Of a stretch of 64,000 bases of DNA, positions 8,611-12,958 are shown one piece after another. The first letter of the stretch is position 1. Each line of letters begins with the position of its first letter. The stretch lies in NCBI RefSeq assembly GCF_000020145.1, contig NC_010644.1, positions 1,364,001 to 1,428,000 on the forward strand, read 5' to 3'. Below the pieces are notes generated by a model. That model saw nothing but the letters and a program-made list of their open reading frames with translations. It searched no databases and had not been told where the DNA came from. This DNA comes from Elusimicrobium minutum Pei191. Lineage in GTDB: Bacteria; Elusimicrobiota; Elusimicrobia; Elusimicrobiales; Elusimicrobiaceae. A program made the position numbers and the translations under genes.

Positions 8611-8615
8611 AACTT

Positions 8616-8640
8616 ACCCGCGGGGCAACGCCCCGCGGGT
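8616..8640. terminator. Very stable GC hairpin after the outer-membrane protein gene
   Basis: Perfect 11-bp stem acccgcggggc/gccccgcgggt with a 3-base loop, 6 bases after the stop codon. There is no T-tract on either side, so it may act as an mRNA-stabilising 3' hairpin or a weak terminator rather than a classic intrinsic terminator. Confidence 0.6.
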
Positions 8641-8697
8641 GTCTGTCTTAAAATATTAAGGTGTTTTCAGGCAGGCAAAAATTACGGGAGCATATTG

Positions 8698-9594
8698 ATG
8701 GACTTTAAAAAAGAATTAAAAGATTTTTTTGGCGATAATTGCCTTTTAGACGAACCTATGCACACGCATACCACTTACAAAACAGGCGGCATGGCGGAGG
8801 CCCTTGTTTACCCTAAAACCGTTGAGGATTGGAGTTTTATTTTAAAACTCGCCAACGTTAATGATTTACCTTTCAGAGTGCTGGGGTTCGGTTCAAACGT
8901 TATAGTAAGCGACAGGGGGTTAAAAGGGATAACGGCCTCAACCAAAAGAATGACTGAGGTTACAATAACAGACACCGCGCTTAAAGCGGAAGCGGGCCTT
9001 GCCTTGGATAAAGCCATAGAAATCGCCGTGGACAGCGGTTTAGCAGGTATGGAAAAAATGTCAGGCATACCGGGCAGTATAGGCGGCGCGGTAAAAATGA
9101 ACGCCGGCGCTTTCGGACAGGAAACTTTTGACAAGCTTGATTATTTTGAAATTATAAACCGTGAAGGCCGCCCGTCAATAATACAGAAAGAGGATTTGCA
9201 GTACGGCTACCGCTGCGTTGCGGGTATAGAGGATTTTATAGTAATATCGGCCGCGTTTGAATTAAAAAAAGATAATTTTAAACAGCTTATTGAATCAAGA
9301 AATTTAATTTTAAGTAAACGCGCTTTAAACCAGCCGCTTGATTTGCCTTCCGCGGGCAGCGTTTTTAAACGCCCTGCGGGTGATTACGCATCGCGCCTTA
9401 TTGACGAGGCCGGGTTAAGGGGTCTTAGCATAGGCGGGGCGAAAGTTTCCGAAAAACACGCCGGTTTTATAGTTAACTTTAACGCCGCCTCTTCGCAGGA
9501 TATTAAAAACTTAATCGATGAAGTACAAAGAATAGTTAAAGAAAAAACAGGCGTAAAATTAGAGCTTGAGCAAATTTTATGGGGGGATTTTTAA
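8698..9594 (+). CDS. murB: UDP-N-acetylenolpyruvoylglucosamine reductase
   Basis: FAD enzyme that reduces enolpyruvyl-UDP-GlcNAc to UDP-MurNAc for peptidoglycan. 298 residues from the ATG at 8698, which has GGGAG seven bases upstream; an adjacent TTG at 8695 is less likely. Visible family segments are the FAD loops LGFGSNVIVSDRG and GIPGSIGGAVKMNAGAFG, the GYR of QYGYRCVAG, the SAGSVFKRP segment with the catalytic Ser, and the C-terminal Glu region LELEQILWG. Length fits the shorter type-II MurB. It ends 1 base before the hypA start. Confidence 0.95.
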   Translation: MDFKKELKDFFGDNCLLDEPMHTHTTYKTGGMAEALVYPKTVEDWSFILKLANVNDLPFRVLGFGSNVIVSDRGLKGITASTKRMTEVTITDTALKAEAGLALDKAIEIAVDSGLAGMEKMSGIPGSIGGAVKMNAGAFGQETFDKLDYFEIINREGRPSIIQKEDLQYGYRCVAGIEDFIVISAAFELKKDNFKQLIESRNLILSKRALNQPLDLPSAGSVFKRPAGDYASRLIDEAGLRGLSIGGAKVSEKHAGFIVNFNAASSQDIKNLIDEVQRIVKEKTGVKLELEQILWGDF

Positions 9595-9595
9595 T

Positions 9596-10000
9596 ATGCA
9601 TGAATGGGCGTTAAGCGACAGTATAGCAAAGGCCGCCTTGGCCATAAAAAACGAGCAGAATCTCAAAGAAATAACCTCAATAACAGTAGTGCTGGGTGAG
9701 GTGCAGGATATTCACGCGGGCGTTTTTAAGGAAATTTTTGACGAAGTAAAGTTACAGCATGCGGGCGTTGAAAAAGCGGAACTTAAAATAGAAACTGAAA
9801 AAGGTTTCTTTAAATGCAATAACTGCAAAACCGAATTCGGTTTTGAGCGGGAAAAACTACCACATGAAACAGCGGAAGACATCCACTTCGTGCCGGAAAC
9901 GCTGCGCCTCTATATCAACTGCCCTAAATGCAAAAGTTCCGACTTTAACATTATAAAAGGCCGCGGGCTTTATATTAAAGAAATTGAAGGGGATAAATAA
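9596..10000 (+). CDS. hypA: [NiFe]-hydrogenase nickel chaperone HypA (archaeal-type spacing)
   Basis: The true start is the ATG at 9596, because HypA must begin Met-His-Glu to bind nickel (here MHEWALSDSI); GGGGGGA lies 8 bases upstream, inside the end of murB. 134 residues. The zinc site is C74-x2-C77 and C109-x2-C112. The 31-residue gap between the pairs is longer than in E. coli HypA (about 13) and resembles the archaeal Thermococcus protein, from memory. It delivers nickel to the hydrogenase large subunit. The next gene starts at the base after its stop codon, so the two are coupled. Confidence 0.92.
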   Translation: MHEWALSDSIAKAALAIKNEQNLKEITSITVVLGEVQDIHAGVFKEIFDEVKLQHAGVEKAELKIETEKGFFKCNNCKTEFGFEREKLPHETAEDIHFVPETLRLYINCPKCKSSDFNIIKGRGLYIKEIEGDK

Positions 10001-10738
10001 ATGAAAGACTTAAATATTGACCCTAGAGTATATTCAATAGCTCCGCGTTTAAGCAAAATAAAAAAAATTATAGCCGTAACAGGTTTTAAAGGAGGCGTTG
10101 GCAAATCAACGGTTTCCTGCCTGCTGGCTTTAGCGCTTGCCGAGCGCGGTTTAAGAACAGGCCTTGCCGACTTGGATTTTGCGGGCGCAAGCTGCCACGC
10201 CATTTTAGGCGTTAAACCGGGGCCTAAAAGTTTATTCCCCAAAGAAATCGAAGGCCTTTTACCTCCTGATATTGAAGGGGTTAAATTTATGTCGCTTTCT
10301 TATTTTACCCAATCACGCGCCGTGCATTTAAGAGGCGCTGACATAACTAATACCATAATAGAACTTTTGGCCGTTACTAACTGGGGCGAATTGGATTTTT
10401 TGGTTTTGGATATGCCGCCGGGCCTTTCAGACACCGCTTTAGATATTATGCGCTATATACCGCAGGCCAAGCTTATCTGTGTAGTAACGCCAAGCGTACT
10501 TTCACAAAACTTGGCGGCGTCTGCTTTACAGTTTTCAAAATACGCCGGAATAGAAACGGCGGGTATAGTTAAAAACCTTTTAACGGACAACTCCCCGCAC
10601 ATAGATTTCGCTAATTTTAAGACCCTCGTGGAATTAAAAACTGATGAAAATTTTGAAAATAATATCGGCGACATTAAAAAACTAAAAAATACCGATATTT
10701 TCAGAAATTTAGAATTAGCGGTTGAAAAATTGGTTTAA
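10001..10738 (+). CDS. MinD/Mrp-family ATPase, likely HypA partner (HypB-AT-like)
   Basis: 245 residues. Deviant Walker A GFKGGVGKST near residues 28-37, switch I region GLADLDFAGASCH, and Walker B region FLVLDMPPGLSDTAL. These are typical of Mrp/NBP35/MinD ATPases. It directly abuts hypA. In Thermococcus an ATPase of this family (HypB-AT) binds HypA and boosts nickel binding, so I infer the same job here in place of the usual GTPase HypB. The alternative is an iron-sulfur carrier of the ApbC type; the CxxC typical of ApbC is not evident. Confidence 0.8.
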   Translation: MKDLNIDPRVYSIAPRLSKIKKIIAVTGFKGGVGKSTVSCLLALALAERGLRTGLADLDFAGASCHAILGVKPGPKSLFPKEIEGLLPPDIEGVKFMSLSYFTQSRAVHLRGADITNTIIELLAVTNWGELDFLVLDMPPGLSDTALDIMRYIPQAKLICVVTPSVLSQNLAASALQFSKYAGIETAGIVKNLLTDNSPHIDFANFKTLVELKTDENFENNIGDIKKLKNTDIFRNLELAVEKLV

Positions 10739-11470: not shown

Positions 11471-12958
11471 TTAAATATATTTTTTATATTTGCCGCGCGC
11501 TAAGTAAGCAAGTAAAGCAAAACAAACAACATAAATTGAACCGCAAATAAAAATCCTTAAAAAAAGCATATCAATAAATTTTGCCGCCGCAATACTCGGC
11601 GCAAGTGAAACAAGCCCAAAAACCAAAACAGAAAGCATAAGAAAAATTGTTTTTTTATGGCTTATAAAATTTAAATATTTAGACAAAAACACAGGCGCTA
11701 AACAAAGCCAAAAAACATTGCCCCAGAAAAAAGCTACCGGGTACCCCAGCGGGCCTATTTGGCGCATACAAATTAAAATAAGCGCCGCGAAAACAACCGC
11801 GTTAATAAACTGGTATTTAAAAAATTCTTTTAATCTGCGTTCGGCAGAGGCTAAATTTCTGTGTAAATACACGGGCAGTAAAAGTATTATACTGGGCATG
11901 AAAAAAGAAACAAACAAACTTGTCTGTCTCACGTTTTCGGAACTGAAGCTGCCCCTTTTGAAAAACAAAGTTACTATATCATATGAAAACGCCGCCGTAA
12001 AAACCGCCACAGGCGTCATAATAAGCAAAAGGACAGTGAGGTTTTGGTAAAAATAATCAGCCAGGTTTTTGGTGTTTTTCTCGGTAGAAAGCTCGTTAAA
12101 TTTGATTCTTGTTACGGCGGTTATGCGGTTGGTAATAATTTCCGTAGGGGAATCAAAAATCTGTTTAGCGTAGTTAAGCGCGCTTAACACGCCCGAGCCA
12201 AACCCCGTCATTAAAAACAATGGCAAAAAAGAGTTAATTAAAACAAGTATTTCCCCGCCTAAAGAGCCTAAGCTGTTTTTTATAAAATTCTTATCAACAG
12301 ATTCCAAAGAAGGCGTTATTTTCCAGTCAAGTTTAACAAACATTATTAAAACACAGGCCGCGCTTTGTATAAACTGCGCGGCTATAAAACCGCACAGCAT
12401 AGCGGCTACGCCCAAAGTTTTATGAAAGCAAAGTAAAAGCAGCAAGGGCAAAGCGGCGTTAAGCGGGCTTAAATAAGCTATGCCGAATATTCTGTGACGT
12501 TCCAAAATATTAATTAAAAGCTGCGTAAGCAGTAAAAAAGCGAAATAAATTAAAGCCAGAACAAACAGGCTTTCCGCCGCGGGGGTGATAATATTAAAGC
12601 GTGAAATTAAATTAAGCCAAAACCCGGGCGTAACTCCCCCAAAAACAATAAAAATAAACCCAGCCGCGATATAAAAATATATAAACAAATTTAAAAATTT
12701 AATTTCACTTTCTTTACTTTGTTTAGCAATATAAGAAGCATGGGGAATAACCACATTGGTATTGTAAGAAAGGGCCAGGTTTGAGCCTATGCCCGCCGCC
12801 ATAATAAGGTAAAAATAAATATCCGTGCCGTAATAAGCGCCGAAGAGAAAGGCTATTATAATACTGTTTATAAAAGAAAGCAATTTCCATACGCAGCTGC
12901 ACGCAACGCTTACCACAGCGCCTTTCCTATACGAATATTCATTAAAAAGTCTTTTCAT
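11471..12958 (-). CDS. MurJ/MviN-like lipid flippase (MOP superfamily)
   Basis: 495 residues, almost entirely hydrophobic with about 13-14 predicted membrane helices. The segment LFFKRGSFSSENVRQTS matches the MurJ/MviN signature (FxRGxF followed by an acidic helix start). Relatives flip lipid II or polysaccharide-linked undecaprenyl lipids across the inner membrane. It may be the cell's MurJ or a paralogue for exported glycans. It starts at ATG 12958 without a Shine-Dalgarno, 7 bases after a TATAAT. Confidence 0.82.
   Translation of the reverse strand: MKRLFNEYSYRKGAVVSVACSCVWKLLSFINSIIIAFLFGAYYGTDIYFYLIMAAGIGSNLALSYNTNVVIPHASYIAKQSKESEIKFLNLFIYFYIAAGFIFIVFGGVTPGFWLNLISRFNIITPAAESLFVLALIYFAFLLLTQLLINILERHRIFGIAYLSPLNAALPLLLLLCFHKTLGVAAMLCGFIAAQFIQSAACVLIMFVKLDWKITPSLESVDKNFIKNSLGSLGGEILVLINSFLPLFLMTGFGSGVLSALNYAKQIFDSPTEIITNRITAVTRIKFNELSTEKNTKNLADYFYQNLTVLLLIMTPVAVFTAAFSYDIVTLFFKRGSFSSENVRQTSLFVSFFMPSIILLLPVYLHRNLASAERRLKEFFKYQFINAVVFAALILICMRQIGPLGYPVAFFWGNVFWLCLAPVFLSKYLNFISHKKTIFLMLSVLVFGLVSLAPSIAAAKFIDMLFLRIFICGSIYVVCFALLAYLARGKYKKYI

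What the first reader, a model, noticed from the sequence alone, without database searches (positions are those of the whole stretch)
9596..10738. Archaeal-style HypA paired with a MinD/Mrp ATPase
HypA has its two Cys pairs 31 residues apart, near the archaeal Thermococcus spacing rather than the roughly 13 of E. coli, and is directly followed by a deviant-Walker ATPase. In Thermococcus such an ATPase (HypB-AT) partners HypA in nickel loading. This suggests horizontal acquisition or deep conservation of an archaeal nickel-delivery pair serving a hydrogenase elsewhere in the genome.
Basis: partly seen in the sequence, partly recalled or inferred. Interest (0 to 1): 0.6.

Follow-up and report, generated by a model that had tools for sequence, protein, structure and literature searches.

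The report
Archaeal-type nickel-loading pair in a bacterium
A gut bacterium appears to load nickel into its hydrogen-producing enzyme with a two-gene delivery pair of the kind described from the archaeon Thermococcus, and this pair, with a tell-tale histidine in HypA, occurs in many anaerobic bacteria and archaea in place of the usual GTPase HypB.

Summary
hypA (9596-10000) and an ATPase gene (10001-10738) abut; HypA's CXXC pairs are 31 residues apart. Both proteins match the Thermococcus kodakarensis HypA/HypB-AT complex best; the ATPase scores 192 bits to 3vx3 against 98 to Mrp, falls in the HypB-AT clade (support 100/100) and lacks the Fe-S CXXC. The genome (probably Elusimicrobium minutum Pei191) has no GTPase hypB but has hypC, D, E, F, one MBH-like [NiFe]-hydrogenase and its protease. 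The long linker carries the equivalent of Thermococcus His98, the nickel ligand recruited when HypB-AT binds. In my sample, 98 of 99 HypAs beside a HypB-AT have a 31-33-residue linker, and all 100 long-linker HypAs keep this His; HypAs without HypB-AT lack both. Only 2 of 50 HypB-AT genomes hold a clear GTPase HypB; 41 hold HypD. The pair is not a recent archaeal acquisition: it is old in Elusimicrobiales, in a bacterial clade nested among archaeal sequences; separate transfers occurred elsewhere. It is a new bacterial member of a known kind; the linker/His rule and broad bacterial range are the added value. Function is inferred, not assayed.

The parts
9596..10000 (+). hypA, nickel metallochaperone, archaeal (PRK03824/Thermococcus) type, 134 aa
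   Evidence: Pfam HypA 2.7e-24; NCBIfam NF003008 136.4 bits over cut-off 125; 3a43 1.8e-27; AF2 model best matches 5aun_A, TM 0.90
9596..9604 (+). MHE N-terminal nickel-binding motif
   Evidence: invariant in alignment A3
9815..9826 (+). first zinc CXXC (C74-C77)
   Evidence: invariant in A3; read from sequence
9884..9886 (+). His97 = Thermococcus His98, nickel ligand recruited on HypB-AT binding, inside the 31-residue linker
   Evidence: invariant in A3; present in 100 of 100 long-linker HypAs, absent from short-linker ones; role from PMC7055735
9920..9931 (+). second zinc CXXC (C109-C112)
   Evidence: invariant in A3
10001..10738 (+). ATPase-type HypB (HypB-AT), Mrp/MinD superfamily, 245 aa, no CXXC
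   Evidence: 3vx3 1.6e-55; tree 100/100 with HypB-AT; AF2 model top 12 PDB hits all Thermococcus HypB-AT
10088..10108 (+). deviant Walker A KGGVGKS of HypB-AT
   Evidence: invariant K-G-G-x-G-K in A2
8695..9594 (+). murB, directly upstream, probable co-transcribed gene (not part of the nickel function)
   Evidence: Pfam MurB_C 2.1e-31; same order murB-hypA-hypB-AT in the same-genus genome G079, L008

Best explanation
A two-gene nickel-insertion module, HypA plus ATPase-type HypB (HypB-AT). HypB-AT binds ATP as a dimer and docks two HypA molecules; docking swings HypA's zinc domain so that His97 joins the MHE N-terminus and makes a tight, roughly square-planar nickel site; ATP hydrolysis, stimulated by HypA, releases Ni-HypA, which gives nickel to the Fe(CN)2CO-loaded large subunit of the genome's single MBH-like [NiFe]-hydrogenase, after which the HycI-type protease trims the subunit. 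HypB-AT replaces the GTPase HypB. Shown here: gene pair, homology, ligand residues, predicted fold, absence of GTPase hypB, presence of hypCDEF, hydrogenase and protease. Inferred from Thermococcus: ATP-dependent docking, nickel site, release and delivery.
For: Sequence and fold closest to the Thermococcus HypAB complex. HypB-AT clade against Mrp 100/100. His97 and MHE invariant in long-linker HypAs; 98 of 99 HypAs beside HypB-AT have a 31-33 linker and the other has 42, while HypAs without it have 11-13 or other short forms. HypB-AT presence tracks [NiFe] large subunits in 341 Elusimicrobiota: 57 of 58 against 82 of 283, Fisher p 5e-25, not corrected for relatedness. No GTPase hypB in the own genome; over cut-off in 2 of 50 HypB-AT genomes elsewhere while HypD is over cut-off in 41 of 50. 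Own genome: hypC, D, E, hypF, large subunit with RVCGIC and DPCFSC best matching MBH 6cfw, HycI protease. Mechanism in Thermococcus: PMC7055735, PMC9164220.
Against: No biochemical test in any bacterium was found in the papers searched. The C-terminal fifth of the ATPase, beyond residue about 197, is not covered by the phmmer match to 3vx3, though the fold match spans it. The pair sits with murB, not with hyp or hydrogenase genes. Only monomer models were possible, so the HypA-HypB-AT contact was not modelled.
Confidence: 0.9

Rival explanations
1. The ATPase is an ApbC/Mrp/NUBPL iron-sulphur cluster carrier that happens to lie beside hypA.
For: Pfam names it NUBPL iron-transfer NTPase (2.8e-45) and NCBIfam's best hits are MrpORP and ApbC, though far below their cut-offs (127 of 450, 96 of 348 bits).
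Against: Score to HypB-AT twice that to Mrp; fold match E 1e-28 against 7e-16; tree split 100/100; no CXXC in the ATPase, and CXXC in only 1 of 102 relatives; hypA adjacency conserved across domains.
Confidence: 0.03
2. A recent horizontal acquisition of the pair by this genome from an archaeon.
For: HypA and ATPase resemble Thermococcus proteins; the HypA tree puts the Elusimicrobiales clade beside Thermococcus (SH-aLRT 88).
Against: Same pair and same murB neighbour in a same-genus genome; the order's sequences plus Verrucomicrobia form one clade (100/99) inside a bacterial clade (97/91); one Elusimicrobiota clade without L057 is not rejected (p-AU 0.44).
Confidence: 0.04
3. Ancestral (pre-domain) HypB-AT kept vertically in bacteria and archaea, with no interdomain transfer.
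For: Present in many phyla of both domains; deep branches are short and poorly resolved.
Against: All bacterial HypB-AT as one clade is rejected (p-AU 0.0009) and so is all Elusimicrobiota including L057 (p-AU 0.0011). Caveats: MAG binning errors, truncated sampling, model limits.
Confidence: 0.1

Closest known systems
Thermococcus kodakarensis HypA-HypB-AT complex, PDB 5aun/5auo/5aup, 3vx3, 3a43
   Same: Deviant Walker A ATPase of Mrp/MinD type without CXXC, paired with long-linker HypA, MHE and His98-equivalent ligands, fold TM about 0.9 for both
   Different: Bacterial; about 40% identity or less; linker 31 instead of 33; gene pair downstream of murB; serves a single MBH-like hydrogenase
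GTPase HypB (TIGR00073) with short-linker HypA, as in E. coli and H. pylori
   Same: Same step, nickel insertion with HypA before endoproteolysis
   Different: Different NTPase family (G3E GTPase); HypA linker 13 in H. pylori and no His98 equivalent in short linkers; absent from this genome
ApbC/Mrp/NUBPL Fe-S carriers
   Same: Same P-loop superfamily and general fold
   Different: CXXC Fe-S motif missing here, separate clade 100/100
CooC nickel ATPase of CO dehydrogenase (MinD/BioD class; PMC9164220)
   Same: Nickel-related MinD-class ATPase
   Different: Serves CO dehydrogenase; not compared by tree here

Membership tests
HypB-AT (ATPase-type HypB) | Closer to Thermococcus HypB-AT than to any Mrp/ApbC/MinD | tested here: met
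   192 vs 98 bits; clade 100/100; Foldseek top 12 all HypB-AT
HypB-AT (ATPase-type HypB) | Deviant Walker A KGGxGKS | tested here: met
   KGGVGKS at 10088-10108; invariant in A2
HypB-AT (ATPase-type HypB) | Partner hypA of the long-linker type | tested here: met
   abutting; 57 of 58 Elusimicrobiota; 99 HypAs
HypB-AT (ATPase-type HypB) | Replaces GTPase HypB in a genome with [NiFe]-hydrogenase and the other hyp genes | tested here: met
HypB-AT (ATPase-type HypB) | ATP-dependent complex with HypA and nanomolar nickel site | not testable with these tools
   needs purified proteins
HypA metallochaperone | MHE start and CXXC...CXXC zinc site | tested here: met
HypA of the HypB-AT type (NF003008/PRK03824) | Score over curated cut-off; long linker with His98 equivalent | tested here: met
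   136.4 vs 125 bits; His97
ApbC/Mrp Fe-S carrier | CXXC cluster-binding motif in the C-terminal half | tested here: not met
   no CXXC in the ATPase
ApbC/Mrp Fe-S carrier | NCBIfam equivalog score over cut-off | tested here: not met
   127 of 450 and 96 of 348 bits
GTPase HypB | TIGR00073 match in the genome | tested here: not met
   no match at E 0.001 in the own genome, positive controls ring

The most novel reading that the evidence does not exclude
HypA comes in two partner-specific builds readable from sequence: a long linker with the His98 ligand is locked to ATPase-type HypB, a short linker is not. The ATPase pair is a major nickel-insertion route in anaerobic bacteria as well as archaea and has spread between domains as a unit more than once, making the reported archaeal mechanism testable in a cultured bacterium.
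Probability: 0.65. Interest if true: 0.5.

Novelty: new member of a known kind. Interest (0 to 1): 0.42.

Why it matters
It indicates that a maturation route described from Thermococcus is used by a cultured mesophilic gut bacterium and by bins of about ten other bacterial phyla, where Pfam and NCBIfam currently lean towards naming the ATPase an iron-sulphur carrier. The linker/His rule would let annotators tell which HypB partner a HypA uses, and predicts which genomes make [NiFe]-hydrogenase without GTPase HypB.

Tried and rejected
ApbC/Mrp carrier: rejected by score, fold, tree and missing CXXC. Recent archaeal transfer into this genome: rejected by the order-wide vertical pattern and shared murB neighbour. 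Hidden GTPase hypB: TIGR00073 gave none; the PF02492 hit at C1:384102 is an Era-like GTPase. A neighbouring hydrogenase as a general rule: only 5 of 66 loci from genome contigs have a recognisable [NiFe] large subunit in the fetched flanks, so the pair is usually not seen in a hydrogenase operon. The primary papers on Thermococcus HypB-AT (Sasaki 2013, Watanabe 2015) were not available (the latter looked up); their content is taken from reviews.

Full report
What is there. The window is bases 1364001-1428000 of a single-contig genome of 1,643,562 bp; from memory this size is that of Elusimicrobium minutum Pei191, and the relatives found are Elusimicrobiota. hypA (9596-10000) and an ATPase gene (10001-10738) abut on the plus strand, with murB ending one base before hypA's start codon. 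A same-genus genome has the same murB-hypA-ATPase order.

HypA. It has MHE, CXXC at C74 and C109, and 31 residues between the pairs. It passes the NCBIfam model NF003008 and stays below the cut-offs of the general bacterial models; the nearest solved protein is Thermococcus HypA. The AlphaFold model (pLDDT 92.6) is closest to HypA as seen inside the Thermococcus HypAB-Ni complex (5aun_A, TM 0.90), more than to free HypA (0.75-0.77) or H. pylori HypA (0.65-0.67).

ATPase. The best solved match is Thermococcus HypB-AT (192 bits), then Mrp proteins at 98 bits. The model (pLDDT 92.1) has twelve Thermococcus HypB-AT chains as its first twelve PDB hits, TM up to 0.92, before Cfd1 and Mrp. With Mrp as outgroup the HypB-AT clade has support 100/100. 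It has no CXXC. Pfam and NCBIfam names that suggest an Fe-S carrier are therefore misleading here.

The rest of the system. hypC, hypD, hypE and hypF lie together at about C1:414.7-419.1 kb. One [NiFe] large subunit, C1:1229925-1231133, carries both nickel-binding Cys pairs (RVCGIC, DPCFSC) with a C-terminal tail after them; its best solved relative is the membrane-bound hydrogenase 6cfw_L, and a HycI-type protease, NuoB-like small subunit and antiporter subunits adjoin it. No GTPase hypB was found.

The linker rule. In 99 HypAs with a HypB-AT in the same locus the linker is 31-33 residues in 98 and 42 in one (a Thermoproteales bin, L122); in HypAs of Elusimicrobiota loci without HypB-AT it is 11-13, once 21, or lacks a second clean pair. 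The one long-linker HypA without an adjacent HypB-AT, in G186, belongs to a genome with HypB-AT on another contig. A His lies exactly 12 residues before the second CXXC in all 100 long-linker HypAs and at that place in none of the short ones. In Thermococcus this is His98, which moves to the MHE terminus when HypB-AT binds and completes a nanomolar nickel site (PMC7055735). The linker is therefore not a loose spacing trait: it carries a ligand used with this partner. The sequences are related to each other, a few loci are duplicates from two collections, and the loci were found through HypB-AT, so the counts are not independent; the contrast set is small.

Distribution and origin. In 341 Elusimicrobiota genomes, 58 have HypB-AT at over 140 bits, 57 of them with a [NiFe] large subunit (82 of 283 for the rest). 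In 50 of these genomes GTPase HypB is over cut-off in 2 and HypD in 41; of the 14 control genomes, the same number (four) pass the HypB and the HypD cut-offs. The tree places E. minutum in an Elusimicrobia plus Verrucomicrobia clade (100/99) inside a bacterial clade (97/91); holding all bacteria together is rejected (p-AU 0.0009), as is holding all Elusimicrobiota together (0.0011), because L057/G339 falls among WOR-3 and ANME sequences. So the pair is old in Elusimicrobiales and interdomain transfer occurred in the family; a direction from archaea is suggested by the nesting but the deep branches are weak. The HypA tree has few columns but shows similar groups.

Verdict. This is a bacterial HypA/HypB-AT pair: known mechanism, and a host range wider than the papers I could search describe. 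Whether the bacterial range has been noted in papers not held here I cannot tell.

Noticed in passing
G293 (L044 5663-6013), G331 (L045), G338 (L046), G245 (L048), G327 (L054) and similar: Roughly fifty other Elusimicrobiota genomes have a HypA without HypB-AT, mostly with [NiFe] large subunits and, in the loci read, short-linker HypA next to hypF/hypC/hypD, yet no GTPase HypB passes its cut-off in any of 341 genomes. How they load nickel without a HypB is unexplained.
   Followed up: partly
L037 4563-4976 and L038 4713-5057 (G339): One Elusimicrobiota genome carries both HypA builds: a long-linker HypA with HypB-AT and a short-linker HypA near hypF; its pair groups with WOR-3 and ANME, an independent acquisition.
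   Followed up: partly
L039 4550-5624 and 10654-13298 (G106): In this f2-family relative the pair lies within about 6 kb of a group 3-like hydrogenase whose large subunit best matches Thermococcales sulfhydrogenase models, with a maturation protease beside it.
   Followed up: no
L122 5794-7000: A Thermoproteales bin has a HypA with a 42-residue linker (His kept, as MHMVP) beside a very divergent HypB-AT-like ATPase (160 bits).
   Followed up: no
window 8615-8641: Strong terminator-like hairpin (12 pairs, 10 G-C) just upstream of murB, possibly separating the murB-hypA-hypB-AT transcription unit from the gene before it.
   Followed up: no
window 11471-12958 (-): MurJ-like flippase downstream on the other strand; a similar gene is also downstream in the same-genus genome (L008 19-1551), so a small cell-wall gene neighbourhood frames the pair.
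   Followed up: no
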